A stretch of 64,000 nucleotides of DNA, taken from contig JASEES010000006.1 of the NCBI GenBank assembly GCA_030019395.1, positions 1-64,000 on the forward strand, given 5' to 3'. The translations under genes and the position numbers were made by a program. The notes below the pieces were generated by a model, which was not told where the DNA came from, made no database searches, and saw nothing but the letters and a program-made list of their open reading frames with translations. Of this stretch, positions 8,820 to 24,617 are shown one piece after another (position 1 is the first letter of the stretch; every line of letters begins with the position of its first letter). The DNA is from Methanolinea sp. Lineage in GTDB: Archaea > Halobacteriota > Methanomicrobia > Methanomicrobiales > Methanospirillaceae.

Positions 8820-8845
8820 GTCTTGCACAGGGTATGTAAATCCGG

Positions 8846-10557: not shown

Positions 10558-10570
10558 GGAATATTCTATC

Positions 10571-10774: not shown

Positions 10775-12109
10775 TCACCGTCTCCTTCCCCATACTACCA
10801 ACACGGGGATCCCCATGCCGAGCAGGGCAAGAACTGCCGGGAGCGGGGCCTTCGTCGGGGTTATGGTCGGGGAGGGTGAAAGTGTTGCATCTACGGGCGT
10901 CTGGGTGTCCCTGTTGACCTGAATAGTTGCCCTCCAGTCGGTATAGCCGGGATGGGTCAGGAGGACGGTGTGCATACCAGGGGGAACCGAAGGGATGACG
11001 AGCGGAGTAATTCCCATGTACTCGTTGTCCAGGTATACGCTCGCCCCGGCGGGATTTGACTGGACGGACAGCGAACCCGTACCAGAGACCTGGGTTGGAG
11101 TGGGGGTGACAGAGAGTGTCTGGGAGACCCTCGTCGTCTCACCGGAGTTGACCAACACGTTCCCTATCCAGTCCTGGAAGCCCGAGAGGGATATCCTGAC
11201 CTGGTGGTACCCCGGGGGGAGTCCGGATGCAAGCTGCGGCGAAGGGCCATAGTATGTCCCGTCAACGTAGACACTTGCACCAGAGGGGACAGACGTGACA
11301 TAGATGGAACCGGTCGCAGGAGTGATTGGGGAAAGTGATGCAAAGACCTGTGTATTCAGGCCGGAACTGACTGATGTTGTCGTACTCCATACCTGGTACC
11401 CGGACTTGCTCACCTGGACCGTATGGAGACCGGGAAGCACGTTATCGAACGTGCAGGGTGTGACCTTTGACTGCGCGCCGTCGAGAACAGCAGTCGCACC
11501 AGAGGGTGATGACGTCACGGTGATGCTCCCGTAAGTCTGGACAGGCTGCAATGTTGCCGTCACGTAAACGGTCTCGTCCTCGCCGGGGTTGCCGGGCTGG
11601 TAACTGCTCCACTCCTGGTAGCCGGAGAGCACGAGCCGGATGGTATGCCCCGGCGTCCCCGTTGTCGAAACGGTTACGGTGAGCGGGGTGGTCCCCTTGT
11701 ATGAATCATCGAAGTAGACTGATGCTCCCGAAGGGCTGGAGGATATCCTGTAATATCCTTTACCCCCACCCGGCATGGGTTGGAGCGTCGCGCTGATGTG
11801 GATCGTCTCACCCTCGAAGGGATTGCCCTCATACGTATCGGTCCATTCAGTGTAGCCGGTCTTGGTGATCCGGATCGAATGGGACGGGGTTCCTGTTGTG
11901 GAAACAGGAATTGTGACAGGGGTCTCGCCCCGGTATGTCCCGTCAAAGTAGACCGTTGCACCCGACGGGGAAGACGAGATCTGGAAATATCCCGTGCCGC
12001 CACCGATCATGGCAGAGACCTGTCCCGTGCATGCCACCAGGGCGATGGCAAGCAGGATAACAGCAGGAATCGAACGTAAAGAGAAGGACACCATGGATAC
12101 ATTCCTCAT
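10775..12109 (-). CDS. PEGA-repeat surface protein (five repeats)
   Basis: 444 residues. A signal peptide (PAVILLAIALVACTGQVSA) is followed by five PEGA domains of about 70 residues, each starting with a form of G-S(I/L)-V-S-PSGA-VY-DG and ending in GY-W. Repeats 1 and 2 are closest to each other, sharing the insert VSTTGTP. A Pro/Thr linker (SPSPTITPTKAPLP) and a C-terminal membrane helix ending in GRRR complete the protein. PEGA proteins are abundant in methanogen envelopes and probably bind surface polymers. The ATG at codon 6 (12094) has GAGGA upstream and is an equally good start. A TATA-like TTTTTATAG lies at about 12140-12150. Confidence 0.85.
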   Translation of the reverse strand: MRNVSMVSFSLRSIPAVILLAIALVACTGQVSAMIGGGTGYFQISSSPSGATVYFDGTYRGETPVTIPVSTTGTPSHSIRITKTGYTEWTDTYEGNPFEGETIHISATLQPMPGGGKGYYRISSSPSGASVYFDDSYKGTTPLTVTVSTTGTPGHTIRLVLSGYQEWSSYQPGNPGEDETVYVTATLQPVQTYGSITVTSSPSGATAVLDGAQSKVTPCTFDNVLPGLHTVQVSKSGYQVWSTTTSVSSGLNTQVFASLSPITPATGSIYVTSVPSGASVYVDGTYYGPSPQLASGLPPGYHQVRISLSGFQDWIGNVLVNSGETTRVSQTLSVTPTPTQVSGTGSLSVQSNPAGASVYLDNEYMGITPLVIPSVPPGMHTVLLTHPGYTDWRATIQVNRDTQTPVDATLSPSPTITPTKAPLPAVLALLGMGIPVLVVWGRRR

Positions 12110-12252
12110 GTTTTCATATCTGGATTGCTGCAGAGACTATAAAAATCATGCATAAAACAGCTTCATGATACCTTTCATTTTCCAGGTCTCCCCCGAAAAA
12201 TACTATGTGGTTTTACGGTCAATATCCGGAAAATAATTTTTGGAGGAAAATC

Positions 12253-13494
12253 GTGGAAGATTTTCATCAAAAAGTTCCATCAAAGCGCCAGGAACTCGAT
12301 ATTGCACTCGAGGCTGTCATCCTGCTTGTGCTCTCGGTCTTCATGCTCCTCTTTGGTGTCCTCCTCTTTTTCATCCACACCGGCGATCTGCCCTATGCAC
12401 CGGACAGCACCTACGGACTCTTTCTCGTTATCGTTTCCCTGCAGGTCATCACCATGGGCAGGACCCCGTTTGGCGACGTTCGCCGATCCTGGCTTGTCAC
12501 CATCGTGGGGATCTCGGCCTCGGTCATCGGCATGGGTGCCTGTTTTATCCCGGAATCCCTCTCGGCCCTTGTCAGGATCCTTGTCGGCGTGCTGCTCTTG
12601 TCCGGAGGTGCGGTCCTCCTTTTTCAGCTTGCTTCCCGCAGGGACAGGGCTCCAGCGTGGCTGAAGGTTCCCGGCATCCTCCGGCACCTCACGCTTGCAT
12701 GCGCCCTCGTGTACCTCATGGCTTTTATTCTCGGCCTCGTCACGATCCTGCCTGCTCTCACGACCGACTGGCTGACCGCAGTCTTCCTCATCGTTTATGG
12801 TATAAGCCTCCTCTACCTTGCATGGTGTATCCAGGTCGTCAGGAAGGAATACCCCGAAAGTTCCCTGCCACCATCCACGGGACCGTCCGAAGAACGACAC
12901 TTCTTCCTCCTCCGGGAGGCACCTCTCACCTTCACGACAGCTCTCCTTGTCTTCCTCGGTGTGCTCCTTGCGTTCCTGGCAGTCCTTCTCGTGCCAATCA
13001 CCATGGGAACGCTCCCCTTCTCTCCCGATGGCCAGTTCGGTCTCCTGCTCGTTATCATGGCGATCCAGGTGCTTGCAGTGGGGGAGACACCAGTCGGCCG
13101 GTTCCGGCGCTCGTGGACGCTTGTCACGATCGGTCTTGCCTTCGTTGCACTGGGCGTCTTTTCCTGCATTGTCCCGGGTATCATGACCGATGTGCTCCGG
13201 ATCATGCTCGGAATACTGAACATCGCCGGTGGGATCGTTCCTCTGGCCATCCGGATTTTCCCCCTCCTGCAGCAGATGGGAACCCCGAAGGCGCCCCCCG
13301 TCCCGATTCCCACCCCTTTGAGAAACCTGCTCCTCACCCAGACAGTCCTCAACATCGTGAGCATACTCTTTGGCACATCCATGCTCCTTCCGGGACTCAT
13401 CCCGGGCATGGTGACAGCAGCGATTCTCTTCTGCAATGGGATTCTGCTTTTTGTCCTTGCACGGATTCTCTCCACCCTGCCATCAGCGGCGTGA
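12253..13494 (+). CDS. integral membrane protein with internal duplication
   Basis: 413 residues, about 12 hydrophobic segments. The two halves match each other: DLPYAPDSTYGLFLVIVSLQ against TLPFSPDGQFGLLLVIMAIQ, GRTPFGDVRRSW against GETPVGRFRRSW, and the glycine-rich helix after each. The protein therefore arose by duplication of a six-helix unit. No catalytic or transport signature is recognised. The GTG at 12253 is preferred because GGAGG lies six bases upstream (12242-12246); an in-frame ATG at 12205 is the alternative. It is the last chromosomal gene before the integrated element. Confidence 0.7.
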   Translation: MEDFHQKVPSKRQELDIALEAVILLVLSVFMLLFGVLLFFIHTGDLPYAPDSTYGLFLVIVSLQVITMGRTPFGDVRRSWLVTIVGISASVIGMGACFIPESLSALVRILVGVLLLSGGAVLLFQLASRRDRAPAWLKVPGILRHLTLACALVYLMAFILGLVTILPALTTDWLTAVFLIVYGISLLYLAWCIQVVRKEYPESSLPPSTGPSEERHFFLLREAPLTFTTALLVFLGVLLAFLAVLLVPITMGTLPFSPDGQFGLLLVIMAIQVLAVGETPVGRFRRSWTLVTIGLAFVALGVFSCIVPGIMTDVLRIMLGILNIAGGIVPLAIRIFPLLQQMGTPKAPPVPIPTPLRNLLLTQTVLNIVSILFGTSMLLPGLIPGMVTAAILFCNGILLFVLARILSTLPSAA

Positions 13495-13654
13495 GAGACA
13501 ACCCTCTTTTTTCGCGCATTGACCGTGGTTTTCGGAAGAGAGAGATGAAATGCTGAAAGGGGGAATAACCCTGAATTAAATATTCTGCATGACAATAATT
13601 CTTGGAACAAAACTCCGGATGGATTTTTGTTCAATCGAGAGGAAATCAGGTGTA

Positions 13655-13665
13655 TACCCCCGTAG
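13655..13665 (+). repeat. left attachment core (attL candidate)
   Basis: TACCCCCGTAG, identical to 24527-24537. It lies just upstream of the likely integrase start and downstream of the last chromosomal gene, where an integration junction is expected. Confidence 0.65.
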
Positions 13666-13723
13666 GGTTCCAGACTCATTGACCACTACACTAATGTATC
13701 ATTACGTGGGATCTCTTTTCTTG

Positions 13724-14872
13724 ATGGACTCTGAAGAGGAACTGATCTCCCGATACTTCGAGGAACGACAAGCACACCGCGGCACCCGGGAACAGAGCGT
13801 GAACGCACGGCGATATGAGTTATCGTTTGTTCTGAACCTTTTGCACAAGGCCGGGAAAAGACTGGATACCATCACCACACAGGACGCACTTGGAGTATTC
13901 CGGGCGATCCGGTCTATGGGACCTGTTGACGAGGGCGGTGATGGGACATTATCCCGGAACTATAGCCGCCGCGTGATAGTTACGTTCAAATCGTTTTTAA
14001 CTTGGTATGCGGATAACGGCGGCCGTATCGACACCAGGAAGATAAAACCTGTCAAGGCTCCGGGTATGGACTTCGCCGCCAAAAAGAAAGAGGACCTGCT
14101 AACGCGAGAAGAAATAGAACGAGTCCTTACCGCATGCACCACGTCACGCGATCGGGCCATTATCGCGACGTTATACGACGGGTCCCTTCGCCCTGGTGAA
14201 GTGGTCGGGTTGAAATGGGGCGACCTTATCCGGGACGATTACGGAATACGCATAGTCCTTAAAACCCCCAAAACTGGAAAGGAACGGCCGATACGGTTTG
14301 TTTTTGCCGTCCCGTATATCAACCAGTGGGAAAACGATTATCCTCTTCCAATCGCCCCCACGGCCCCGGTTTTCCTGCAAACCGTGAGGCACTCGCATAA
14401 CTACGCGCCGTTAACCTACGCCGGCCTTGCCAAAACAATATCCCGCCTTCGAAAAAGGACCGGGATTAATAAATTAACCCCATCAATTTTCCGGCCCTCG
14501 AAAATCACGCATGATGTTGAAGAAGGGACTGATTTGCAATACGTCATGTTAAAAAACTGGGGGACAATGAGGACGCCGATGATCGACGTCTACGCGAAAC
14601 CGGGAAAAGACTATGTGGACCGGGTGGCGTTGGAAAAATCGGGTATTGCGCAGAAAAAACCCGCGAAGAAGACGGTCACGCTCGCCCCCAAGGTATGCCC
14701 GGAGTGTCAGACTTTGAACCCGGCAAATGCGGCATATTGTGTGACTTGCGGATACGGACTCACACCGGATACCAGGGCACGTAGGGGGACGGTCTTGGAT
14801 GTCCTCGCAGACCTGGCAACGAAGGACCCCGAAGGATTCATGGATGCGCTGAAGACATTGAAGAAATCATGA
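13724..14872 (+). CDS. element integrase, tyrosine recombinase with C-terminal zinc ribbon
   Basis: 382 residues from the ATG at 13724 (MDSEEELISRYF); an ATG at 13694 is also inside the element, and the frame is open further left. The N-terminal SAM-like domain precedes the catalytic part: Arg in DGSLRPGEVVGLKWGDL, Lys in LKTPKTGKERPI, an altered box II (PSIFRPSKITH, where HxxR is usual), Trp in LKNWGTM in place of the LGH His, and the nucleophile Tyr in MIDVYAKPG. A zinc ribbon follows (CPECQ...CVTCG). Archaeal integrases of this type with a C-terminal ribbon are common in plasmids and proviruses. Its position next to the left core implies that it made the insertion. Confidence 0.85.
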   Translation: MDSEEELISRYFEERQAHRGTREQSVNARRYELSFVLNLLHKAGKRLDTITTQDALGVFRAIRSMGPVDEGGDGTLSRNYSRRVIVTFKSFLTWYADNGGRIDTRKIKPVKAPGMDFAAKKKEDLLTREEIERVLTACTTSRDRAIIATLYDGSLRPGEVVGLKWGDLIRDDYGIRIVLKTPKTGKERPIRFVFAVPYINQWENDYPLPIAPTAPVFLQTVRHSHNYAPLTYAGLAKTISRLRKRTGINKLTPSIFRPSKITHDVEEGTDLQYVMLKNWGTMRTPMIDVYAKPGKDYVDRVALEKSGIAQKKPAKKTVTLAPKVCPECQTLNPANAAYCVTCGYGLTPDTRARRGTVLDVLADLATKDPEGFMDALKTLKKS

Positions 14873-15397
14873 AGGTTGGCAGGGATCTGTATCAGGGATG
14901 GCTTTATTCATGATTTGTTTCATGTATTCCTCACTATTCCGTTCGAGTTCCGCTGCTCGTTCCTTCAATGTTTTTAGTGGGTCTTTTATTCCAAGTTCGC
15001 TCAAAATAAGTTGTGCTGCAAGATCTCTGGTTGTCAATTTCATAACCAGTTTGTAGAGTTTTTTACTATCAGCAAAAAGAACGTCGCGGGTTTGGGGGAT
15101 CACTCCGATTTTTATTCGATAAAAGAGGGGCCGTTTACCAGGTTCTTGTAGATTCTTTTCGCATCGTTTTTGTTCAATAAGATCGGCATCTGTCATTGCT
15201 TTCAGTAGACGATTTAGGGTGGTGCTGTGTGGGATCTCCCCCGTCTCCACCAATGCAGAATGAAGATCCCGGGCTCGGACCCATCCCCCATTCTGGTCAC
15301 GATGCTCGAGGAGATATTTAATGATTAATTCTGTGTAGATACGCTGCTCGTCTCCCTTCCTTGTCTTTAGGAAGTCATGAACGCGATCATACACCAT
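14867..15397 (-). CDS. winged-helix regulator of the element
   Basis: 176 residues. A winged-helix-like N-terminal half (IIKYLLEHRDQNGGWVRARD, then STTLNRLLKAMTDADLIEQ) resembles archaeal DNA-binding repressors. The C-terminal part is helical and charged (LKTLKERAAELERNSEEYM), suggesting a dimerising coiled coil. The start at 15397 is chosen because a TATA box (15421-15430 on this strand) lies about 25 bases upstream, giving a leaderless mRNA; the frame stays open to 15475. It is divergent from the ribbon-helix-helix gene across a repeat-bearing intergenic region. This arrangement is typical of a maintenance switch. Confidence 0.7.
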   Translation of the reverse strand: MVYDRVHDFLKTRKGDEQRIYTELIIKYLLEHRDQNGGWVRARDLHSALVETGEIPHSTTLNRLLKAMTDADLIEQKRCEKNLQEPGKRPLFYRIKIGVIPQTRDVLFADSKKLYKLVMKLTTRDLAAQLILSELGIKDPLKTLKERAAELERNSEEYMKQIMNKAIPDTDPCQPS

Positions 15398-15420
15398 TTC
15401 CTCATAGTTGAACACTTTAA

Positions 15421-15430
15421 CTTTTATATT
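15421..15430 (-). promoter_or_regulatory. TATA box of the winged-helix regulator gene
   Basis: AATATAAAAG on the minus strand, about 25-30 bases before the ATG at 15397, so the transcript should be leaderless. The adjoining 12-base repeat overlaps its upstream edge. Confidence 0.6.
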
Positions 15431-15464
15431 ATTACACAATGGTATGTGAAATTTATTACACAAT
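15429..15464. repeat. paired operator-like direct repeats
   Basis: TTATTACACAAT occurs exactly at 15429-15440 and again at 15453-15464, with starts 24 bases apart. The first copy touches the TATA box of the winged-helix gene and the second lies between the two divergent promoters. Likely binding sites for one of the two flanking regulators; which one is not known. Confidence 0.6.
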
Positions 15465-15482
15465 AGACAGTCCAACGTGAAA

Positions 15483-15492
15483 TTTTATATAG
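15483..15492 (+). promoter_or_regulatory. TATA box of the main element operon
   Basis: TTTTATATAG about 33 bases before the ATG of the ribbon-helix-helix gene. It leaves a short leader that contains the GAGG ribosome binding site at 15513-15516. Confidence 0.5.
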
Positions 15493-15524
15493 GAATAAAA
15501 TAACTATATATTGAGGCGATTAAA

Positions 15525-15692
15525 ATGGCCAAACGGTTCGTCGGGCTCAGTCTTGAGACGAGCACCTTAAAAGCCCTGGATAGCTTCCGGGGCGACATTC
15601 CGAGGAGCAGGATCATTGAGAGATTGCTTCAAGAACGACTAAAATTAGAATCCCCGTCCTCACAGCTTGCAGGCGTAGGAGACGGGGAATGA
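15525..15692 (+). CDS. ribbon-helix-helix DNA-binding protein, 55 aa
   Basis: Read directly from the bases. It has a beta strand (KRFVGLSLE), a first helix (STLKALDSFRG), the turn and a second helix (PRSRIIERLLQERLK), which is the MetJ/Arc/CopG fold. A Ser/Gly tail follows. GAGG at 15513-15516 supports the ATG. It is the first gene of the main rightward operon and faces the divergent winged-helix regulator, so it probably controls element copy number or the choice between integration and replication. That role is inference. Confidence 0.75.
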   Translation: MAKRFVGLSLETSTLKALDSFRGDIPRSRIIERLLQERLKLESPSSQLAGVGDGE

Positions 15693-15710
15693 TCACATTG
15701 GGGCGATCAG

Positions 15711-15878
15711 ATGAATATAGACACTTCGAAGTCTAAAAGTTATTCTCTCCCCCTCAAGGTCACCCAGGAAGACATCGAGCACCTTCCGCCCCTCGAGCGT
15801 ATTTTTGCAGAATTTTTGATCCGAACCAGGCCAGGCGAGGTTTTCGTTCTTGTCGACGACGAGGGGGCGGGTCATTGA
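15711..15878 (+). CDS. small unknown element protein, 55 aa
   Basis: Begins MNIDTSKSKSYSLPLKVTQE and ends VFVLVDDEGAGH. Acidic, probably folded, no recognised family. It starts 18 bases after the ribbon-helix-helix gene in the same operon, and its TGA overlaps the TTG start of the next frame (TTGA). Confidence 0.55.
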   Translation: MNIDTSKSKSYSLPLKVTQEDIEHLPPLERIFAEFLIRTRPGEVFVLVDDEGAGH

Positions 15879-16105
15879 GGCCGCGGGGCAGAAATCCCGC
15901 ACACCGGGCCAGATTCCTGGTCGAGCAGGTGAAAACAGGCTCTCTTACGACCCGTGGACAGTGGACGCGGTTCGCTGACGAACTACACTGCCTCCCTGGC
16001 GGGTTGCTTTTGTGGGTTCTCCGGGAGATCCGCCCGCACCTCGGGGACGAGGCCGTTTCCTACATCATGCAATGGCCGGGTAAAGCGCAGGGGGTGACGA
16101 TGTGA
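15875..16105 (+). CDS. small basic element protein, 76 aa
   Basis: The TTG start at 15875 overlaps the preceding stop as TTGA, and its own TGA overlaps the ATG of the topoisomerase-like gene as TGATG, so translation is probably coupled on both sides. The sequence is Arg-rich at the N-terminus (RPRGRNPAHRARFLVEQVKT) with a hydrophobic helix LPGGLLLWVLREI. No family recognised. A start further in cannot be excluded. Confidence 0.5.
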   Translation: MRPRGRNPAHRARFLVEQVKTGSLTTRGQWTRFADELHCLPGGLLLWVLREIRPHLGDEAVSYIMQWPGKAQGVTM

Positions 16106-17028
16106 TGGGGGATATCGAGGCGGCAGTAACCACCGACCCTTATCGAACATGTTCGATAAGGAAGAGAACCCGACGATCACCTAAGGATCTCAATACCATC
16201 CTGGCTGCCTGCCGGGCTATTATTGCTGAAGAAAAGACCGTTACCTTAAGGCATCTGTTCTATCGTCTTGTTTCCCTTGGACTGATTGAAAAAACCGAAA
16301 AAGAATATGGGAGGTTGTCATTTTACACGATGAAATGGAGGAGAAATGGATCAATCCCTTGGACCTCCTTTGTGGATTCTTCACGCTGGTATCATGGCGT
16401 AGAGGTATTTGATAACCTTGCCGATGCCCTTGAAAACTCAAAACGATGTTTTCGCCGCAATCTCTGGCAATCCCAAAAAGTCTATATCGAGATATGGACC
16501 GAGAAAGACGCGATCGCAGCTATCGCACAGCAAGCAGCAGAACCTTTTGGCGTTCCTGTATTTCCTATGAAGGGATTCGTATCGGGTTCGGCTCTCTATT
16601 CCATCGCACAAGCAATTAAATATCAACAGAGTTGTGGGAAAACGGTTTATGTCTACCATCTCGGGGATTGGGACCCATCCGGTAAATGCATCGATGAGAG
16701 CACGGTGAAAAATCTTCGTGAAGATCATGGCGTCGTATTCAATTTCAGTCGGTTAGCAGTCACACCCGAGCAAATAAAGCAATACGACCTCCTCACGCGA
16801 CCTACGAAGAAAACAGATCCGAGATCGAAGTCCTTCCAGGGGGAGAGTGTCGAAGTGGACGCCCTGCCACCTCACATTATCCGAGATCTCGTTGAGTGGT
16901 GTATCTCCCATCATATTGAATCCCAAGCGTGGCTGCGTGAGATGGAAATTGAGGCCATGGAGAAAAAGATGTTCGACCGCATGACCGAGGCCTTAGATAG
17001 GGGGGACTTTGAGGGGGTGACGGTGTGA
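16105..17028 (+). CDS. topoisomerase VI A-subunit-like protein (Mini-A type), no B subunit
   Basis: 307 residues with the Spo11/TopVI-A order. A winged-helix segment has the candidate catalytic Tyr53 in TVTLRHLFYRLV. A TOPRIM domain follows with Glu133 (WTEKDAI) and the DxD pair Asp188/Asp190 (HLGDWDPSG). It is shorter than the roughly 360-residue cellular A subunit. No GHKL ATPase (B subunit) is encoded in the element. Such solo A-like proteins in mobile elements have been described as Mini-A. They may nick or cleave DNA for replication or recombination; the activity is unproven. GGGGTGA lies eight bases before the ATG. It is coupled to the helicase gene by a GTGA overlap. Confidence 0.8.
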   Translation: MGDIEAAVTTDPYRTCSIRKRTRRSPKDLNTILAACRAIIAEEKTVTLRHLFYRLVSLGLIEKTEKEYGRLSFYTMKWRRNGSIPWTSFVDSSRWYHGVEVFDNLADALENSKRCFRRNLWQSQKVYIEIWTEKDAIAAIAQQAAEPFGVPVFPMKGFVSGSALYSIAQAIKYQQSCGKTVYVYHLGDWDPSGKCIDESTVKNLREDHGVVFNFSRLAVTPEQIKQYDLLTRPTKKTDPRSKSFQGESVEVDALPPHIIRDLVEWCISHHIESQAWLREMEIEAMEKKMFDRMTEALDRGDFEGVTV

Positions 17029-18935
17029 ATGGTGCGGGTGCCCTTCAATCCCAAGACCGGGCTGCAGTAATTTCAAGACTCGAAGATCTTCGAACGCGCG
17101 AAAAGAACGCTCCTATTGAAGCGCGGCAAGAGATTGCGCTCGAAATTTCAAGATTAACAACTCTTCTTCAGAAGATCGACGGCGCAATTACAGAAACCAG
17201 GTGCGAGGAGGACTCGTATAAACGCGACAGCACGGGCCCTTCGGAATACGATGAGATAAACACGCGACTATGGCTGGAAAGGGAACAGAACCGTCTTAAA
17301 GAAATCGCAGCAGAACGGGACCGGCAGGAAAGATTGACCGTTCAATGCCGGGATGGAACTGTTGGGTGCGCGTATAGTGATATAGGAAACGCTCGTCGGT
17401 TCATAATTCGGCATCACCGCAATGTCAGATATTGCGCACCCTGGCGGAAGTGGTTGATATGGGATGGGGCCCGCTGGGCAATAGATGATAGAAACGAGAT
17501 ACTGCGTCTGGCAAAAGACACAGCACTCCGGATTGCTGATGAGGCACGCATTCAGGATACCCCACAGGAAGTCTTGCGGTGGGCGGCGGCATCGCAGAAC
17601 CACGCCCGGATTATGGCAATGGTTGATTTATCAAAACCTGAATGTGCAATCCTTCCTGAGAATTTCGATGCAAACCCAAACCTCTTGAATTTCCCGAACG
17701 GCACCCTCGACATCAGGACGTTCATGTTCCGCGAGCACCGGAGAGAAGACCTATGCACAAAGGTCATGGGATGCATCTATGACCCTGATGCGCAATGCCC
17801 GACCTGGCTGGAACACTTGCACATCGTCTTCGCAGGAGATGAGACCTTCATTCATTCTTTCCGGTTGATGTGCGGATACTCGCTCCTCGCAAATAACCCG
17901 GAACAGGTCCTCTTCGTCCTGCATGGCGGAGGAAAGAATGGAAAGTCCGTCACCATCGGAACCCTGCGGCGGATCTGGGGGGAGTATGGCTGGAACCTGG
18001 CGGCAGACAGCCTTCTGGCCCGAAAGCATGCGGATGCATGCACACCACGGTCGGACCTTGCCGCACTAAAGGGCGTTCGCCTGGCCACGGCGTCAGAGAG
18101 CGATGGAGGCACCAGGTTGTCAGAGGCTACCGTGAAGATCCTCACTGGTGGTGACGATGTACTGACGGTCCGTCGCCTCTATTCCGAGGAGTTCTCATTC
18201 AAACCCGGCGCAAAGATCTGGCTCGTTACGAACCATTTACCGACCGTTCGAGGCACTGACGAGGCGATATGGCGGAGGATCTGGCTGGTCCCGTTCACAG
18301 TCACCATCCCGGAGGATAAACGAGACCCAATGATGGGAGATAAGCTGTATGCCGAGGCGTCCGGGATCTTGAACTGGTGCCTGGAGGGATTCCGGGAGTA
18401 TATGCAGGCAGGCCGGTTAGTGAGACCGGAGATAGTCACCCAGGCAACCGATGCATACCGGGAAGACCAGGACATACTCGCTGACTTCCTGGCGGAATAC
18501 TGTGATGTGGGTGAGGGGTATGAATGCACCGCAAAGGAGCTTTACCAAGCATATCGACAATGGTGTGCATGGGATAATGAGGAGCCGCTGAAGCCGAGAA
18601 CCTTCGGGATGCGGATGGGTGAGAGGTTCCAGAGGGTTCACACCAGGCTGGGGAAGGTCTACAAGGGTGTGAAAATTCGGAGTCAAAGTAACATCATCAA
18701 AAACAATCAAAATACACCCTGTGACGGAAAAGAAGCCCGGGTGACGGATAAATTCATTACGGGGAAAAGTCCCCTTAAGGAATCAACGGAATACTTTACC
18801 CCCTTTTTGAATTATCCGTCACCAAGCGTCACCGAGCCCGTAAAATCGAGATCGGATCTGAGCGCGAAGTGCGACCCACCATCCGACTCGGAACTGACTG
18901 CAGCACGGCGGGACCGGCAGGGGGTGGGGTCATGA
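17025..18935 (+). CDS. D5-family SF3 replicative helicase
   Basis: 636 residues with a GTG start overlapping the preceding TGA and a strong GAGGGGG upstream. Residues 1-110 are helical and charged. D5_N-like sequence follows (GNARRFIIRHHRNVRYC onward), then the SF3 helicase core with Walker A HGGGKNGKS near residue 300 and LWLVTNHLPTVRGTDEA-type sensor sequence (KIWLVTNHLPTVRGTDEAIW is 20 residues, near 405). The C-terminal D5 wing lies near 490-570, then a low-complexity tail. The archaeo-eukaryotic primase domain often found at the N-terminus of such proteins is not visible. It would unwind the element origin as a hexamer. Confidence 0.85.
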   Translation: MNGAGALQSQDRAAVISRLEDLRTREKNAPIEARQEIALEISRLTTLLQKIDGAITETRCEEDSYKRDSTGPSEYDEINTRLWLEREQNRLKEIAAERDRQERLTVQCRDGTVGCAYSDIGNARRFIIRHHRNVRYCAPWRKWLIWDGARWAIDDRNEILRLAKDTALRIADEARIQDTPQEVLRWAAASQNHARIMAMVDLSKPECAILPENFDANPNLLNFPNGTLDIRTFMFREHRREDLCTKVMGCIYDPDAQCPTWLEHLHIVFAGDETFIHSFRLMCGYSLLANNPEQVLFVLHGGGKNGKSVTIGTLRRIWGEYGWNLAADSLLARKHADACTPRSDLAALKGVRLATASESDGGTRLSEATVKILTGGDDVLTVRRLYSEEFSFKPGAKIWLVTNHLPTVRGTDEAIWRRIWLVPFTVTIPEDKRDPMMGDKLYAEASGILNWCLEGFREYMQAGRLVRPEIVTQATDAYREDQDILADFLAEYCDVGEGYECTAKELYQAYRQWCAWDNEEPLKPRTFGMRMGERFQRVHTRLGKVYKGVKIRSQSNIIKNNQNTPCDGKEARVTDKFITGKSPLKESTEYFTPFLNYPSPSVTEPVKSRSDLSAKCDPPSDSELTAARRDRQGVGS

Positions 18936-19237
18936 GCCCACGTCTGCGATGGTTCAAACACAACCAGCGAAGGCCGGCAAGGGACACACCACCGGCAAGC
19001 GAGGACAGGCACCCGGGCGGCCCCGTTCCTGGACTCTGGTGTTTCCAATGTTGGGAATGCGGGCACCGATGGACCGGTCCCCTCGTTTGGAACAATGCCA
19101 AATGCGCCATTTGCGGGGAGACCGTCCGGGTATCATGCGTGCGGCAGGCAACCCCGGGCACGGCATCACAACCCGGGGCCGGCCCCACACCCGCGACAAC
19201 AACGGCGAACAGTACCGAGGTGAAACATGAGCCATAA
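18932..19237 (+). CDS. small zinc-ribbon protein, 101 aa
   Basis: The ATG overlaps the helicase stop as ATGA. A basic N-terminus leads to CFQCWECGHRW and KCAICGE, giving a four-cysteine zinc ribbon with extra cysteines. A Thr/Ala/Pro-rich tail follows. Possibly a DNA- or protein-binding accessory of the helicase; no family is recognised. Confidence 0.6.
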   Translation: MSPRLRWFKHNQRRPARDTPPASEDRHPGGPVPGLWCFQCWECGHRWTGPLVWNNAKCAICGETVRVSCVRQATPGTASQPGAGPTPATTTANSTEVKHEP

Positions 19238-19694
19238 TAAAACGAGCAAAAGATCTTTAGTTTCTGAAGAAAAGCGGCAGCGGGCATTGGATTTACGCCG
19301 TGCCGGGGTGCCATACCGGGACATTGCACGCGAAATTGGCGTCTCACCCGGGCAGGCATACAAATACGTTGTATCTGGTCTGCGCCAAATCAGGGAGAGA
19401 AACGCCGAACTGGCCGAGGACGTCCGGACCCTTGAGAGACTCAGACTGGATAACCTGTTCCAGCACGCGTTTAATGCCGTCCTTCAAGGGGACTTGTCGG
19501 CAATCGACAGGTGTATAAAAGTAATGGACCGGCGGGCCCGAATGGACGGTCTCGACGCCCCGAGCAGGTCCGAGGTCACGGCGAGCCTGACCAGCACACC
19601 CGAATGGATCGAATTGAGAACAAAAATCTTAAACGTCCTGGAGAAATTCCCGGGCGCGAAAGAACAATTGATCAGAGAATTACAGGAGGTTTGA
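19227..19694 (+). CDS. helix-turn-helix protein, terminase-small-subunit-like
   Basis: 155 residues with GAGGTGA seven bases upstream. The N-terminal helix-turn-helix (ALDLRRAGVPYRDIAREIGV, then SPGQAYKYV) resembles the homeodomain-like region of resolvases and small terminase subunits. The helical C-terminal half (NAVLQGDLSAIDRCIKVMDR) resembles small terminase central domains. No large terminase is present, so a role in packaging is doubtful. It may instead bind the replication origin. Confidence 0.55.
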   Translation: MSHNKTSKRSLVSEEKRQRALDLRRAGVPYRDIAREIGVSPGQAYKYVVSGLRQIRERNAELAEDVRTLERLRLDNLFQHAFNAVLQGDLSAIDRCIKVMDRRARMDGLDAPSRSEVTASLTSTPEWIELRTKILNVLEKFPGAKEQLIRELQEV

Positions 19695-19698
19695 AAAA

Positions 19699-19887
19699 AT
19701 GAATGAGCTGATTTTCGACATTAAAAAACGCCTCATGCCCGCATGGAAAGTCCTGCGGGTAAAGGCCGGAACGACGGAAGAACAGATAGAAGAACTCAAA
19801 AAGGCAAACCCGGCGGAAAACTATGTTATCGTCGAACTCGTCGGGCGGAAGGATGTTGAACCCACAATTACGCGGCAAGAAAAATAA
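19699..19887 (+). CDS. small unknown element protein, 62 aa
   Basis: A very strong ribosome binding site (AGGAGGT) overlaps the previous gene's end. The sequence begins MNELIFDIKKRLMPAWKVLR and continues with the alternating pattern ENYVIVELVG. No family recognised. Same operon as the helicase. Confidence 0.6.
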   Translation: MNELIFDIKKRLMPAWKVLRVKAGTTEEQIEELKKANPAENYVIVELVGRKDVEPTITRQEK

Positions 19888-19899
19888 CGAGGTAATTAT

Positions 19900-20100
19900 A
19901 TGACAACTAAAATAAAATACGAGTTATGGAACAACGGCAAGAAGGTAAAAGCCATTGACACGTGGCCCGATGCGATAGATAAATACTTGGAACGCGACGG
20001 CGACGAGGTCTTTCCGGCCGGCAAGTCACCATACGTGGAAGAGGACGACAAGATCACCGAGGTTATCCCCCTCGTGCCTGAAAAACGGAAGGTGTTCTGA
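19900..20100 (+). CDS. small acidic element protein, 66 aa
   Basis: MTTKIKYELWNNGKKVKAID followed by an acidic stretch (DGDEVFPAG, EEDDKITEV). GAGG lies nine bases upstream. Its last base is the first base of the next gene's ATG, a one-base overlap. No family recognised. Confidence 0.6.
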   Translation: MTTKIKYELWNNGKKVKAIDTWPDAIDKYLERDGDEVFPAGKSPYVEEDDKITEVIPLVPEKRKVF

Positions 20101-20678
20101 TGCCCATCCTGAAGAAAACCACACCGGACGCCGACCAGGACGAGGTCGCGGCATTGAGGGCAGAGGTCGAACGATTAAAAACCCTCGACCGCATAAAGGC
20201 GAAATACCACGTTACCGACCCGGAAACCGCCGAGGCGCTCCTTGAACGCGAAAGGCAGGAAGAGGAAGAGAAAGCCCGCCGCCTCCGGGACTTTGAAGAG
20301 GAACAGCGCAGGAAGGCCGAGTTTGCGCAGAAGGCGAGAGAAAAGGCCTTGGAACTCTTCGAGACCGACCGCCTTCGGATCTGGTACCTCGAGTCAGGCC
20401 GTCCGGTGCAGAAGGTAAAAACCCTTGCCGGTTACGCCGTGCCCTGTAAGCAGTGCGGCGAACCCCTGCGGGAAACCATCTACCGGGTGCAATATGTTGG
20501 AGAGGCCTTTCTCAGGTATATCGATCGACCCATGCAGGACGGATCCGACCTGATCATTTACTCGGCCCGGAACCCGCTAAGCGTCTTTGTTGGGACCCTC
20601 TCGTTTTGGTTTCGCGAGAGGTGCTCAAGTTGCGGGAAAACGTCTTCCGGCCTCGCCCAATTAACGGTGTTGGAATGA
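20100..20678 (+). CDS. coiled-coil protein with zinc-binding C-terminus, 192 aa
   Basis: Residues 12-85 form a long charged coiled coil (EVAALRAEVERLKTLDRIKA and RERQEEEEKARRLRDFEEEQ). The C-terminal half has two CxxC pairs (CKQCGEP near 118 and CSSCGK near 177) that could form a zinc ribbon around a beta-rich insert. No family is recognised. The layout would suit a structural or DNA-organising protein of the element. The stop overlaps the next ATG as ATGA. Confidence 0.65.
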   Translation: MPILKKTTPDADQDEVAALRAEVERLKTLDRIKAKYHVTDPETAEALLERERQEEEEKARRLRDFEEEQRRKAEFAQKAREKALELFETDRLRIWYLESGRPVQKVKTLAGYAVPCKQCGEPLRETIYRVQYVGEAFLRYIDRPMQDGSDLIIYSARNPLSVFVGTLSFWFRERCSSCGKTSSGLAQLTVLE

Positions 20679-20872
20679 CCCGGACCACCCACGAGGCGAG
20701 GATCGCGGCGTTGGAAGAGAAGGTGGCCGCCCTGGAGTCCGCCCTGGACCGGGTCACCGATATGGTCGGCGAGATCATGGACCTGCAAAAACGCACGCAC
20801 GAGTGCGTATGCCGGCAGGACGCCCGGGCCCCGGGTGGACCCAGTGACGACGGGACGCCGTACCACCGGTGA
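20675..20872 (+). CDS. short coiled-coil protein, 65 aa
   Basis: MTRTTHEARIAALEEKVAAL continues as leucine/valine heptads to about residue 40, then two cysteines (ECVCR). The ATG overlaps the preceding TGA. It ends the main operon; the roughly 300 bases beyond hold no convincing gene. Confidence 0.6.
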   Translation: MTRTTHEARIAALEEKVAALESALDRVTDMVGEIMDLQKRTHECVCRQDARAPGGPSDDGTPYHR

Positions 20873-21170
20873 ATGGGCCCTCCGGTAACATCACCGGGGG
20901 GTTAAAAGGGTTTTCGCGATATCGTTGCAGATAATGCGGGAATCCAATCACCTCTTAGCGATTGAACGTGAACGGGCAAAGAAGAGGCATCAGGAAACCT
21001 GAATCTGTGGTGGCAACGTTGCCACCACAAAATGAAGGCAAATCCCCACCAGGTGGAATAGGTGCGGCCATTATCACTATCCATTGTGGATAGTGATACC
21101 CACAAAACGGGATGGAAAAGGCCCCGTTTCTATTTCGGGGCAGATGGGAAATGTCCCTTATAAAAACGTT

Positions 21171-21344
21171 TTACTTCTTTTCAACCCGTAGACATTTCCT
21201 ATTCTCATCAATTGTGATCAATACATCTTCCCCATCTTCAAAAGGGAAACGGTCATCTCCCGCAACATCGGCAGGGATGGAGATATATCGAGTCCTGGCC
21301 TTTCCACTTATCAAGAATATTTTTCCTATTCCCTTCTTTGACAT
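21171..21344 (-). CDS. AbrB-like (SpoVT/AbrB fold) regulator, 57 aa
   Basis: Found only by reading the minus strand. MSKKGIGKIFLISGKARTRY leads into ISIPADVAGDD and EDVLITIDENRKCLRVEKK, the strand pattern of swapped-hairpin AbrB proteins common in archaeal viruses and antitoxins. A TATA box on the minus strand (about 21368-21381, AAAGTATAAATATC) is 25-30 bases upstream, so the mRNA would be leaderless. It is divergent from the second small-gene operon across a cluster of repeated sites that it probably binds. Confidence 0.72.
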   Translation of the reverse strand: MSKKGIGKIFLISGKARTRYISIPADVAGDDRFPFEDGEDVLITIDENRKCLRVEKK

Positions 21345-21349
21345 TGATA

Positions 21350-21415
21350 ACTAAATTAGTAAGCAAGATATTTATACTTTAACCACCTATTGTAATTTAG
21401 TTACTAAATTGGTAA
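21350..21415. promoter_or_regulatory. operator-like cluster between divergent promoters
   Basis: ACTAAATTAGTAA at 21350-21362 and ACTAAATTGGTAA at 21403-21415 differ by one base. A reverse-orientation partial copy (GTAATTTAGT) starts at 21392. The TATA box of the AbrB-like gene lies between them. The spacing suits cooperative binding of a small dimeric repressor controlling both directions. Confidence 0.6.
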
Positions 21416-21437
21416 CTAACAACAAGGTGAAGAACCC

Positions 21438-21983
21438 ATGCAGAACGTGAAGAACACAAACGCGGCCGCCCCCTTTTCCCCGACTGCAAACGACGGAAAC
21501 GGGAAGGCAGCCAGGAACAGTATCGGCATGCAGATAAATGGGGTTTTCGTTCGGTGCGGCACCATCCGCATGAAGGGGAAGGCCGTCGAGGTCGCATATC
21601 GCGGGGTCGGTGGTGAATATACGGCGTATATCGGGGCGAAGGACATCCCCGGACTCGTCGGCCCCTCGCGTATGCCCTGCGACGTTCATGAGGTCCACGA
21701 GGACCCAGGCACCGACACCACTATGATCACCGTGGTCGGGCGTGCCTGGCGCTCCAGGTCGGGCCGTGCTCTCATGATCAAGACGGTGCACACTGCCGGC
21801 GCGGATATGATGGTCACGTGGCGGAAATTTTTGGACGTCCTCGAGGGGCGCACTGACCGGGCCACGGTCTCGAAATTCGCGGACAGGATAGATACCACTA
21901 CCCCCGCACCGATCGCCCAACCTCGTGCGAATAATGAGCCCGTAAAATCGCCCGTTTCCAAGGGACTCGAGGGGGCGTTCTGA
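21438..21983 (+). CDS. unknown element protein, 181 aa
   Basis: First gene of the second rightward run, with GGTGA 9-13 bases upstream. A disordered N-terminus (about 28 residues, NTNAAAPFSPTANDGNGK) precedes a beta-rich central domain (MQINGVFVRCGTIRMKGKAV; MITVVGRAWRSRSGRALMIK). A helix (WRKFLDVLEGR) and a disordered Pro-rich tail follow. This is the general plan of a small nucleic-acid-binding protein, but I recognise no family. Confidence 0.65.
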   Translation: MQNVKNTNAAAPFSPTANDGNGKAARNSIGMQINGVFVRCGTIRMKGKAVEVAYRGVGGEYTAYIGAKDIPGLVGPSRMPCDVHEVHEDPGTDTTMITVVGRAWRSRSGRALMIKTVHTAGADMMVTWRKFLDVLEGRTDRATVSKFADRIDTTTPAPIAQPRANNEPVKSPVSKGLEGAF

Positions 21984-21985
21984 TC

Positions 21986-22123
21986 ATGCCCTTTACACCC
22001 GATGAAGAGGCGGCAATCGAGAAGATCCTGATCGACCTCGCGAAGACTGAGGAGGGCCGTGCTCTTCTCCGTCGGTATGCAGAGGACCATGGGATCCAGA
22101 TATCGAAGGAAGAGGCGGAGTGA
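21986..22123 (+). CDS. very small element protein, 45 aa
   Basis: MPFTPDEEAAIEKILIDLAK with an acidic helical end (ISKEEAE). A G-rich ribosome binding site lies just upstream and the gene starts two bases after the previous stop. No family recognised. Confidence 0.5.
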   Translation: MPFTPDEEAAIEKILIDLAKTEEGRALLRRYAEDHGIQISKEEAE

Positions 22124-22125
22124 TC

Positions 22126-22347
22126 ATGCCCGACATTCCGGTCCTTGGAAACTATCTGCATACCACCCGGCAGGAAGGACCTGTCTACTCCTCGAGTATC
22201 ACGATAGGCACCCCGGCAAAAGGCGGCGAAGTGAAGGTCTATTTCGACCCGGCCGACCCCGTGGACGCAGAGAAGAGGATCCGCGAGGCATTCCGACTGC
22301 GGGCGCTCGCCCGGGCCCTGGCAGAAGGACAGGAGGTGCACGCATGA
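22126..22347 (+). CDS. small element protein, 73 aa
   Basis: MPDIPVLGNYLHTTRQEGPV, then a beta strand (GGEVKVYFDPADP) and an Arg/Ala-rich helix (EKRIREAFRLRALARALAE). A GGAG site lies upstream. The stop overlaps the next ATG as ATGA. No family recognised. Confidence 0.5.
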   Translation: MPDIPVLGNYLHTTRQEGPVYSSSITIGTPAKGGEVKVYFDPADPVDAEKRIREAFRLRALARALAEGQEVHA

Positions 22348-22490
22348 CCTGGTGGATCTGCAGGTCATGTATCCCCGCGTGTCAACTGCGAGGGGTTAAT
22401 GATCCGGAGAACCCCCCACGAGGGTGTCCCTGGAGATACAACAACCCAGACGAACCCGATAAGTCAAATTGGCGGAATGTGGTGGACTAA
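22344..22490 (+). CDS. very small Cys/Trp-rich element protein, 48 aa
   Basis: MTWWICRSCIPACQLRGVND has three cysteines close together with a fourth in PRGCPWRYNN, so it may bind zinc. An AGGAGG site lies upstream. Coupled to both neighbours by overlapping start and stop codons. Confidence 0.5.
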   Translation: MTWWICRSCIPACQLRGVNDPENPPRGCPWRYNNPDEPDKSNWRNVVD

Positions 22491-22654
22491 TGCCATCCGA
22501 ACGCTGGCACGAACTGGAACGCCGGTTCCAGGCCGAGTATGATAAGGTAAACTGGTATCTCCGGCACGACGACCTTATGGCGGCCGCATATCACCGCGGG
22601 AGAATGGACGCGGCCCGTGCCGCCCTAGAGGAATACGAACGGAGGCACCCGTAA
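22490..22654 (+). CDS. very small helical element protein, 54 aa
   Basis: The ATG shares a base with the preceding TAA (TAATG). MPSERWHELERRFQAEYDKV is followed by a second helix rich in Ala/Arg. An amphipathic helical hairpin is likely; function unknown. Confidence 0.5.
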   Translation: MPSERWHELERRFQAEYDKVNWYLRHDDLMAAAYHRGRMDAARAALEEYERRHP

Positions 22655-22812
22655 TGAGATGCAAGAAATGCATGAACTGGCAGTGGGACCTCGTGTGGCC
22701 CTATGCCACATCTGAAGAAGGTATCTCCCTGCACCTGTGGCAATGCACGACGTGTAAGCATGTGGTTCTGGCGTCGGATCAGACCGCAGAGTCAGAATGG
22801 GTGACAGTATGA
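22654..22812 (+). CDS. very small zinc-ribbon-like protein, 52 aa
   Basis: Two CxxC pairs (MRCKKCMNW and WQCTTCKHV) about 30 residues apart make a minimal zinc ribbon. The ATG shares a base with the preceding stop (TAATG), and its own stop overlaps the next start as ATGA. Confidence 0.55.
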   Translation: MRCKKCMNWQWDLVWPYATSEEGISLHLWQCTTCKHVVLASDQTAESEWVTV

Positions 22813-22964
22813 TACCGACAACCTTTTTCCGGGAGAGGGCGATCGCATATCGTCGTATCCTTGACCTGGAACGCGAGGCCGATGCCCTCGACCGTGCCGG
22901 GTATCCAGTCCAGGCACGCGCGAAACGGGCCACCGCCTCCATCCTGCGGGCTTTATGGATGTGA
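22809..22964 (+). CDS. very small helical element protein, 51 aa
   Basis: MIPTTFFRERAIAYRRILDL is followed by EREADALDRAGYPVQARAKR. It is a basic, two-helix protein with no known family. Last gene of the second small-gene run. Confidence 0.5.
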   Translation: MIPTTFFRERAIAYRRILDLEREADALDRAGYPVQARAKRATASILRALWM

Positions 22965-23033
22965 TCATGTTGTGGGGAATTTACTGGGTAACGAAGTCGG
23001 CGAAAATATTCATGTAATCCCGTTGGGTGTTGC

Positions 23034-23489
23034 TCACTGACCCATTATTACTTTCACCCGCTCTCTTTTTTCCTGTGATTTCTGGAGCCATGGAGAGGCT
23101 GTTGAGATATAACCAAGAGCTTCGATAGAACCAGCGTCCTGGACCTTTGAGAGATCAACACAGGCCATACGGAGATCGCTAAGAGCTGAAAGGTAATCCT
23201 GTTTTGCGGTTGAATATTTAGTGGTTACTTGAATTTTAGAAATGGCATCATAATGCCCATCAATGGTATTAATCATGGCCTTTGATTTTCCGGACATTGC
23301 TTTCAAATCAATGTTTGTGGTCCCTTCTGGTCCCATAGCCGCGCGCATATCGTTACCATACTGAATCACATCGGTTTCAGAATCTTGCCAGGCTTTCCGG
23401 AACTCATCATCGGGATTTCCACCTAAACATCCAGAGAGGGCCATAGTGGATATTAGGATTAGTAGAAGGAGTGCATGGAGTATTTTCAT
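23034..23489 (-). CDS. small lipoprotein carried by the element
   Basis: 151 residues. The signal peptide (MKILHALLLLILISTMALSG) ends in the lipobox cysteine at residue 21, followed by CLGGN. The mature part is helical and charged with no recognised domain. It is on the opposite strand to its neighbours and more AT-rich than the flanking host genes. It is probably a passenger gene that alters the host surface rather than an element core gene; that role is inference. Confidence 0.7.
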   Translation of the reverse strand: MKILHALLLLILISTMALSGCLGGNPDDEFRKAWQDSETDVIQYGNDMRAAMGPEGTTNIDLKAMSGKSKAMINTIDGHYDAISKIQVTTKYSTAKQDYLSALSDLRMACVDLSKVQDAGSIEALGYISTASPWLQKSQEKRERVKVIMGQ

Positions 23490-23756
23490 AGGGCTACCAT
23501 ATTAAATTAAGAAAGAAAAAATTTCCGTTTCTCATAAAACAAAAGATCATATCGTGACCACCTCGATCGCCCATCTCATTTTTATATTGCTGATAAATAA
23601 TATCTCAATATAAAATCCTTTTTTTGGGATTAAACGTGTTTTATCGTGTTGCTGACTATCCCATACTCTTAATTATGTGGTCGCCGATTCCTGGGACGGT
23701 GACAGGGCCCGGGTTGTTAAGGGGTTCCTGGAACGACCCGCACATTTGGAGAGCAC

Positions 23757-23867
23757 ATGACACAGCGCGACGACATGATTAAGATCTGGGACGCCCAGGA
23801 AGCGGAACTTGCCCGCCTTGTGAATGATCCCGCTGCCGAAAGGTTTAAAAAGGATCGGCATATATGA
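23757..23867 (+). CDS. possible very small protein, 36 aa
   Basis: MTQRDDMIKIWDAQEAELAR with a charged helical remainder ending in KKDRHI. A GGAG site six bases upstream is the main support. No family; could be a chance frame. Confidence 0.35.
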   Translation: MTQRDDMIKIWDAQEAELARLVNDPAAERFKKDRHI

Positions 23868-23882
23868 TCGAATTGGTACCTA

Positions 23883-23954
23883 CCAACCCCAGACAACATG
23901 GTACCCTCACAACCCCCGCGGTTGTCTGTTTGTGGTGTGGTTTTTCGGGGTTGG
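23883..23954 (+). repeat. two-part inverted repeat upstream of the Cys-rich gene
   Basis: CCAACCCC (23883-23890) pairs with GGGGTTGG (23947-23954). Just inside, AGACAAC (23891-23897) pairs with GTTGTCT (23921-23927). The RNA could form a 15-pair stem with an asymmetric bulge. It lies about 80 bases before the Cys-rich gene's ATG and could be a structured leader or a protein site. Confidence 0.45.
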
Positions 23955-24032
23955 TTAAAACAGGATTATTTGACCGAAGGTTCGTTTCCTGGAACCGATC
24001 GAATCAAAAAAAGTCCTAAAGAGGTAATGATC

Positions 24033-24299
24033 ATGTATTGGAACACCGAATGTGATAAATTAAACGAAACGTGCGACGAATGCGTAAAGGAATTTTGCTC
24101 CGAATGCATTAAGGAGTATTGTCAATACGAATGCAAGGCCGGGGATCTTCCCGAAGTCTGCGAGACCTGCGATCCGAGGGAAGAGTTAAATTGTGTCTAT
24201 GATTGCGACCTTTCGGAACGTTTGGGGTGTGCGGACTGCGAGGAAATCAGGAATTTATGTATCGAGTGCGACGAAGTAAAAACCTGTGATATCAGATAA
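24033..24299 (+). CDS. small acidic cysteine-rich protein, 88 aa
   Basis: Sixteen cysteines in 88 residues, mostly as close pairs: CDEC, CSEC, CQYEC, CETC, CVYDC, CADC and CIEC, in a strongly Glu/Asp-rich background. Such density implies metal clusters or several zinc sites; in an anaerobe iron-sulfur or thiolate-metal binding is possible. GAGGT at 24021-24025 fits the ATG at 24033; one at 24027 is also in frame. No family recognised. It is the last gene of the element, about 230 bases before the tRNA. It has no signal peptide. Confidence 0.65.
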   Translation: MYWNTECDKLNETCDECVKEFCSECIKEYCQYECKAGDLPEVCETCDPREELNCVYDCDLSERLGCADCEEIRNLCIECDEVKTCDIR

Positions 24300-24526
24300 T
24301 TCATTTTTTTCGTCGTGACCAACAGACATAATATACCCGCCCAACAATCCCTTTTTGCCAACCCGACCAGGGGCGGGTTGTGCTATCGGTCATTCACCAC
24401 CTGCACATACACAACCCCCGCATCTTTTTTCCTGCGTGATGGGGTCAAACGTTTTTATTATTGACACGCGAATATTGACAGGCAACCAGATACACAAGAT
24501 GTTAGTGTATTTGCCAATCGGTCGTT
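24300..24526 (+). other. non-coding right end of the element
   Basis: No gene seen. CAACCCG (24358-24364) can pair with CGGGTTG (24374-24380). CACAACCCCCGC at 24410-24421 repeats the sequence at 23909-23920. An imperfect inverted repeat (GGCAA 24481-24485 and ATACAC 24490-24495, against GTGTAT 24505-24510 and TTGCC 24511-24515) ends 11 bases before the attachment core. This may hold integrase arm sites and the promoter now used by the tRNA. Confidence 0.45.
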
Positions 24527-24537
24527 TACCCCCGTAG
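24527..24537 (+). repeat. right attachment core (attR candidate)
   Basis: TACCCCCGTAG, identical to 13655-13665. It covers the base before the tRNA and its first ten bases (5' acceptor strand plus three bases), so the insertion leaves the tRNA body intact. Confidence 0.65.
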
Positions 24538-24600
24538 TGTAGCGGTCAATCATGCAGGACTTTGGATCCGGCGACACCAGTTCGAATCTGGTCGGGGGTA
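24528..24600 (+). tRNA. tRNA-Gln (anticodon TTG)
   Basis: Acceptor ACCCCCG (24528-24534) pairs with CGGGGGT (24593-24599), discriminator A at 24600. T-arm stem ACCAG/CTGGT surrounds TTCGAAT. The anticodon loop CTTTGGA (24560-24566) gives TTG at 24562-24564. The anticodon stem has one A-G mismatch (24556 with 24570). CCA is not encoded. The gene is the insertion target of the element on its left, so its upstream promoter region now comes from the element. Confidence 0.88.
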
Positions 24601-24617
24601 TGGGGAGTGTAAATTCG

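What the first reader, a model, noticed from the sequence alone, without database searches (positions are those of the whole stretch)
13655..24537. Undescribed integrated element targeting the 5' end of tRNA-Gln
The element is bounded by exact 11-base copies of TACCCCCGTAG. The right copy covers the first ten bases of tRNA-Gln, so the insertion uses the 5' side of the tRNA. Most archaeal integrases of known target use the anticodon or T-arm side. The element replaces the tRNA's upstream region and therefore its promoter. An 11-base match within about 100 bases of an integrase start is very unlikely by chance.
Basis: partly seen in the sequence, partly recalled or inferred. Interest (0 to 1): 0.72.

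Follow-up and report, generated by a model that had tools for sequence, protein, structure and literature searches.

The report
Virus-derived element inserted before tRNA-Gln
A 10.9-kb virus-like mobile element sits exactly at the front edge of a methanogen's tRNA-Gln gene, leaving the tRNA intact but cutting it off from its own promoter, a rare type of insertion in archaea that recurs with a related integrase in a second genus.

Summary
Two exact copies of TACCCCCGTAG (13655-13665, 24527-24537) are the only ones in 64 kb (0.02 expected). Same-genus genome G009 has the empty site: host sequence matching 13549-13654 runs directly into tRNA-Gln. The insert carries a zinc-ribbon tyrosine integrase, regulators, a Topo VI-A-like protein, a D5 primase-helicase and a terminase-small-subunit-like protein; no large terminase or capsid gene was found. 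A 45%-identical integrase in another genus (G178) sits beside the same 10-bp core at the same place, with its own empty site in G188. Both elements have inverted integrase-arm repeats at their ends.

A promoter-like box conserved at about -80 before tRNA-Gln in five congeners now lies upstream of the integrase; the element's right end carries another TATA-like box at -79. I infer reciprocal promoter exchange between tRNA and integrase.

Insertion at the 5' end of a tRNA gene is rare but known (pTN3-like integrases; 159 Islander islands with 5' fragments versus 3760 with 3'). New here are an undivided integrase, a core at tRNA bases 1-10, and the tRNA at the integrase-distal end. Verdict: real, a new variant of a known kind.

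The parts
13572..13586 (+). displaced native tRNA-Gln promoter-like box TGAATTAAATATTCT, now upstream of attL and the integrase
   Evidence: invariant TGAATTAAnnATT about 80 nt before tRNA-Gln in five congeners
13655..13665 (+). attL core TACCCCCGTAG
   Evidence: empty site
13681..13698 (+). left integrase arm site GACCACTACACTAATGTA
   Evidence: 16 of 18 identical to the G178 element's left end; inverted partner at the right end
13724..14872 (+). tyrosine integrase with C-terminal zinc ribbon (start codon uncertain; the open frame reaches back through attL to 13589)
   Evidence: PF00589 1.2e-12, phrog_1 4.3e-26
14867..15475 (-). possible winged-helix regulator by sequence reading; relatives next to the integrase in G222 and G007
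   Evidence: no family match
15525..15692 (+). small protein, ribbon-helix-helix-like by sequence reading
   Evidence: relative in G007 element; no family match
15711..16105 (+). two small conserved ORFs (15711-15878 and 15875-16105)
   Evidence: 70% and 55% identical to the same-order genes in the G007 element
16102..17028 (+). Topo VI-A-like (Mini-A type) protein
   Evidence: phrog_6247 DNA topoisomerase 3.6e-49; phage relatives; weak TP6A_N in Pfam
17025..18935 (+). D5-type primase-helicase
   Evidence: PF08706 1.1e-31; 43% identical to Methanoculleus virus L4768/Blf4; 60% to G007 element
19227..19694 (+). terminase-small-subunit-like HTH protein
   Evidence: phrog_645 1.1e-29; relative in Arthrobacter phage Sonali lies directly before TerL and portal; relative in G007 overlaps TerL; several BFVD fold matches named terminase small subunit
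19699..20678 (+). small ORFs and a 192-aa coiled-coil/CxxC protein of unknown function, at the place where G007 has TerL and further genes
21438..21983 (+). conserved element protein of unknown function
   Evidence: 37% identical to the G007 element protein
22120..22964 (+). small ORFs, two of them shared with the G007 element
24448..24462 (+). TATA-like box AACGTTTTTATTATT at -79 of tRNA-Gln: candidate element-supplied promoter
   Evidence: host-tRNA promoter matrix score 8.1, between the 95th (7.2) and 99th (8.7) background percentiles
24502..24523 (+). right integrase arm site, inverted partner of 13681-13698
   Evidence: about 0.002 by shuffles
24527..24537 (+). attR core TACCCCCGTAG, tRNA bases -1 to 10
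24527..24601 (+). tRNA-Gln(TTG), the only TTG gene found in the assembly

Best explanation
This is a site-specifically integrated, virus-derived element of about 10.9 kb in a methanogen-related archaeon. Its own undivided tyrosine integrase recombined a short core (10-11 bp) with the first ten bases of tRNA-Gln(TTG). Shown: boundaries, empty site, target, and a second related insertion at the same base in another genus. Inferred: the attP core plus flanking inverted arm sites bind the integrase as in lambda-type systems, and recombination swaps promoters. In the circle, the box near 24448 would read into the integrase. After integration it reads into tRNA-Gln, while the tRNA's native promoter (13572) reads into the integrase. 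Also inferred, with less confidence: the element is a satellite-like or deleted relative of a tailed virus, since it keeps integrase, replication genes and a TerS-like gene but no recognisable TerL or structural genes.
For: Two exact 11-bp repeats. Empty site in G009 ending at the tRNA's first base, and no insert in G010 and G006. Second element in G178: attL ACATACCCCCGTAGGGT beside a 45%-identical integrase, right end directly before tRNA-Gln on another contig, empty site in G188 with the same flank running into tRNA-Gln. The pattern core+arm occurs in only these 2 of 232 genomes of the order. Inverted arm repeats at both ends of both elements, shared left arm, none in native controls. Conserved native promoter-like box displaced; TATA-like box at the element's right end. 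Viral-type genes and a same-genus relative with TerL in the same gene order. Foreign composition.
Against: No excised circle, transcript or recombination assay was available. The right-end box passes the 95th but not the 99th background percentile, and the matrix rests on 27 upstream regions. The G178 element is split over two contigs. TerS-like relatives in some actinophages are not beside TerL, and the TerS fold model is of modest confidence (pLDDT 73). Structural genes too divergent to recognise could be present.
Confidence: 0.78

Rival explanations
1. The element is a decayed or deleted provirus rather than a functioning satellite: the packaging and structural module was lost and the remainder is stuck at tRNA-Gln.
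For: The G007 relative has the same left and right modules but carries TerL and about 8 kb more between them. No TerL or other G007 middle gene is detectable in the window.
Against: Integrase, primase-helicase and TerS-like frames are all open, and both att cores and arm sites are intact. The G007 relative has no recognisable capsid or portal either.
Confidence: 0.45
2. It is a capsid-less integrative plasmid that borrowed viral replication genes and is not packaged at all.
For: D5/P4-family primases are also found on plasmids.
Against: The TerS-like gene, and gene order shared with an element that has TerS and TerL.
Confidence: 0.2
3. The repeats are chance and the region is normal chromosome.
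For: None beyond the shortness of the repeat (11 bp).
Against: Empty sites end at the repeat in two genera; foreign composition; integrase and viral genes.
Confidence: 0.01
4. The tRNA is transcribed by read-through from element genes rather than from a dedicated right-end promoter.
For: Gene 24033-24299 runs towards the tRNA and the TATA-like box is not decisive.
Against: A 220-nt gap holds the TATA-like box at a distance similar to the native promoter (-79 versus about -80).
Confidence: 0.25

Closest known systems
pTN3/TKV4-like integrated elements of Thermococcales
   Same: attB lies in the 5' part of a tRNA gene; the reconstituted tRNA is separated from its original promoter and is said to be expressed from the integrase promoter (PMC8371274, PMC5495485).
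   Different: pTN3 shares 41 bp that include the anticodon and its integrase gene is split on integration (suicidal). Here the shared core is 10-11 bp at the extreme 5' end, the integrase stays whole, and the tRNA lies at the integrase-distal end.
Islander genomic islands with 5' tDNA fragments
   Same: The displaced fragment is the 5' end of the tRNA gene (159 islands against 3760 with 3' fragments, PMC4383910).
   Different: The listed crossover subsites are anticodon or T/junction; here the identity block ends at tRNA base 10 (acceptor/D-arm junction).
Tailed viruses of Methanomicrobiales such as Methanoculleus virus L4768/Blf4
   Same: D5-type primase-helicase 43% identical over 82% of the length.
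   Different: The 37-kb virus carries TerL, tail and other structural genes; the window element carries none that were recognised.
Phage-inducible chromosomal islands and other TerS-bearing satellites
   Same: Integrase, regulators, primase-helicase and TerS-like gene without TerL or capsid in about 11 kb (anatomy; general knowledge of PICIs).
   Different: Archaeal host; no helper, induction or packaging shown; no sequence relationship to PICIs was tested.
Elements that enter the 5' end of genes, such as those targeting dusA
   Same: Insertion at the 5' end of a gene (dusA 5'-end integrases, PMC4482086, abstract).
   Different: Target is a tRNA gene and the integrase clade is archaeal.

Membership tests
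Site-specific integrated element (tyrosine integrase type) | integrase gene of the tyrosine recombinase family | tested here: met
   PF00589 1.2e-12, phrog_1 4.3e-26
Site-specific integrated element (tyrosine integrase type) | direct repeats at both ends and an empty site with one copy in relatives | tested here: met
   second case
Site-specific integrated element (tyrosine integrase type) | excision as a circle | not testable with these tools
   no reads or cultures available
pTN3-like suicidal integrase elements | integrase gene split by integration | tested here: not met
   one whole integrase frame inside attL
pTN3-like suicidal integrase elements | att site in the 5' half of a tRNA gene reaching the anticodon | tested here: not met
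   identity block stops at tRNA base 10
pTN3-like suicidal integrase elements | tRNA separated from its native promoter | tested here: met
PICI-like satellite | int, regulators, primase-helicase and TerS without TerL or structural genes | tested here: inconclusive
   int and primase-helicase found, no TerL or structural match; TerS assignment probable, and divergent structural genes cannot be excluded
PICI-like satellite | helper-dependent induction and packaging | not testable with these tools
   needs a helper virus and culture
Tailed provirus | large terminase, portal and major capsid genes | tested here: not met
   no such match in Pfam or PHROGs for the ORFs scanned; no hit to the G007 TerL

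The most novel reading that the evidence does not exclude
A TerS-bearing satellite of archaeal tailed viruses that enters the host by exchanging promoters with an apparently single-copy tRNA gene, so that tRNA-Gln supply depends on the element's own int promoter while integrated. Relatives such as G016, whose 90 bp before tRNA-Gln resemble the G178 element's right end, would be lineages that kept the element's promoter after losing the element.
Probability: 0.25. Interest if true: 0.75.

Novelty: new variant of a known kind. Interest (0 to 1): 0.5.

Why it matters
A 2021 review calls the pTN3-like integrases unique in archaea in using the 5' part of tRNA genes. This is a separate case with an undivided integrase and a minimal core at the tRNA's first ten bases, found twice in two genera. 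It makes a concrete question testable: how a cell tolerates an element that takes over the promoter of an apparently single-copy tRNA gene. The element also looks like a candidate for a tailed-virus satellite in archaea; the archaeal satellites cited in the review read here are those of fuselloviruses (PMC11389934).

Tried and rejected
Whole-element megablast against phages gave nothing. Integrase and Mini-A searches of IMG/VR gave no relatives, and the att+arm pattern gave none there. A first, position-free promoter motif search was uninformative; a position-restricted one gave the AACCTTTAT motif. Leader hairpins before tRNA-Gln were folded; several natives and both element ends fold somewhat better than shuffles, but not consistently, so no claim is made. 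I considered that this integrase clade always targets 5' gene ends: G222 sits at the start of nadX, but G132 sits at the 3' end of a protein gene, so the clade is target-diverse, and the 5' grouping has weak tree support (70/36). More distant homologues sit beside tRNA 3' ends. A 10-bp match to tRNA-Ala in G132 was rejected as chance. The 192-aa protein at 20100 gave a low-confidence fold and was not pursued.

Full report
Observation. TACCCCCGTAG is present exactly at 13655-13665 and 24527-24537 and nowhere else in the window. tRNA-Gln(TTG) starts at 24527 or 24528 depending on the program, so the right copy covers the tRNA from just before base 1 to base 10. A tyrosine integrase begins about 60 bp inside the left copy.

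Empty site. Same-genus genome G009 holds 11.1 kb of the left flank at 87% identity and 8 kb of the right flank at 95% on one contig. Its stretch matching window 13549-13654 runs directly into a tRNA-Gln that is 100% identical to the window's. In G010 and G006 the upstream gene, tRNA-Gln and the downstream gene are also close together without an insert. The insert has lower GC (0.52 against 0.58) and a clearly different tetranucleotide profile. The integrated-element reading is therefore established, apart from direct proof of excision.

A second, independent case. The second-best integrase match in 232 genomes of the order, the window's own genome aside (45% identity, G178, another genus), lies just inside ACATACCCCCGTAGGGT. 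The same flank in G188 reads ...CCAATATTACTCCCACATACCCCCGTAGTGTAGCGG, that is, straight into tRNA-Gln. G178's tRNA-Gln, on another contig, is preceded by sequence that G188 lacks. The pattern core + arm occurs in only these two genomes of the order. The shared core in G178 is ACCCCCGTAG, tRNA bases 1-10.

Recombination anatomy. Just inside both elements lies GACCACTAC(A/T)CTAAT(G/A)TA, 16 of 18 bases shared, and the opposite end of each element carries an inverted copy (window about p 0.002, G178 about p 0.001 by shuffles); native upstream regions of relatives show nothing comparable. The element-side flanks give an inferred attP core with the short inverted repeat ACCC-CCGTA-GGGT. This resembles lambda-type core and arm sites; no cleavage position has been measured. 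tRNA acceptor stems are self-complementary, so the 5' strand resembles the reverse of the 3' end used by most integrases; a shift from a 3'-end target is a plausible but untested origin.

Integrase relatives. In a tree of 30 homologues the window integrase pairs with G222 (97/97) inside a supported seven-member clade (100/99). Targets in that clade vary: tRNA-Gln 5' end (G000, G178), the start of nadX (G222; empty sites in G226 and G220), and the 3' end of a protein gene (G132). More distant homologues lie next to tRNA 3' ends.

Promoters. Five congeners and the window's left flank share TGAATTAAnnATT about 80 nt before the tRNA; in the window this box (13572-13586) is now 10.9 kb from the tRNA and upstream of the integrase. 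A motif learned from 27 upstream regions of the host's own tRNA genes (AACCTTTAT) finds AACGTTTTT at -79 in the element's right end, above the 95th but below the 99th background percentile. Only one tRNA-Gln(TTG) gene was found in the assembly, besides one CTG gene, so some promoter must serve it if the organism depends on it. The simplest model is a reciprocal promoter exchange on integration. This step is inferred.

Nature of the element. It encodes, in order, integrase, a possible regulator, small proteins, a Topo VI-A-like protein (phrog_6247, 3.6e-49), a D5 primase-helicase (closest named relative Methanoculleus virus L4768/Blf4, 43%) and a TerS-like protein. Same-genus G007 has a 15.2-kb relative with most of the same genes in the same order plus a large terminase and several further genes, flanked by its own copies of ACCGGATGGTAT. 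The window element has no detectable TerL, portal or capsid. It is thus either satellite-like or a deletion derivative of such an element; I cannot decide between these.

What is known. [quoted passage not shown] PMC5495485). Islander counts 159 islands with 5' tDNA fragments against 3760 with 3' fragments (PMC4383910). The present element belongs to this rare class by behaviour, but it is not a pTN3-like suicidal element, because the integrase is whole and the core stops at base 10.

Verdict. The finding is real and its interpretation is supported. It is a new variant of a known kind, with an interesting promoter consequence that remains to be measured.

Noticed in passing
L204 about 2923-18170 (G007:C58): A 15.2-kb relative with TerS and TerL, flanked by ACCGGATGGTAT, sits exactly at the overlapping stop/start codons of a CPSF-like gene and an MFS gene.
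   Followed up: partly
L085 8382-8471 (G016): The 90 bp before tRNA-Gln are homologous to the right end of the G178 element although no integrase is seen there: a possible element scar that kept the element's promoter.
   Followed up: partly
L117 8700-8760 (G222): The closest integrase relative (51%) has inserted at the start of nadX, separating that gene from its conserved upstream region.
   Followed up: partly
L157 3067-4234 (G178:C37): Cargo at the right end of the G178 element includes a DUF5343 protein matching PADLOC candidate defence family PDC-M34A (2.4e-48); a ParE/RelE-like toxin lies near its integrase (L118 3504-3782).
   Followed up: partly
L071 11911-20000 and L072 1-950 (G009:C59): About 9 kb of mostly exported-protein genes lie 3' of tRNA-Gln in G009 where the window has 280 bp; no integrase was noticed there.
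   Followed up: no
window 12205-13494: The gene just left of the element is absent at this place in G009 (found on another contig) but lies near tRNA-Gln in G007.
   Followed up: no
L162 (G000:C29): The same genome has another integrase gene beside tRNA-Thr(GGT), apparently a 3'-end type insertion.
   Followed up: no
window 13598-13654 and upstream of tRNA-Gln in relatives: tRNA-Gln genes in this genus seem to have a promoter at about -80 and a leader with hairpin potential, unlike most other tRNA genes of the genome (motif mostly at -40 to -55).
   Followed up: partly
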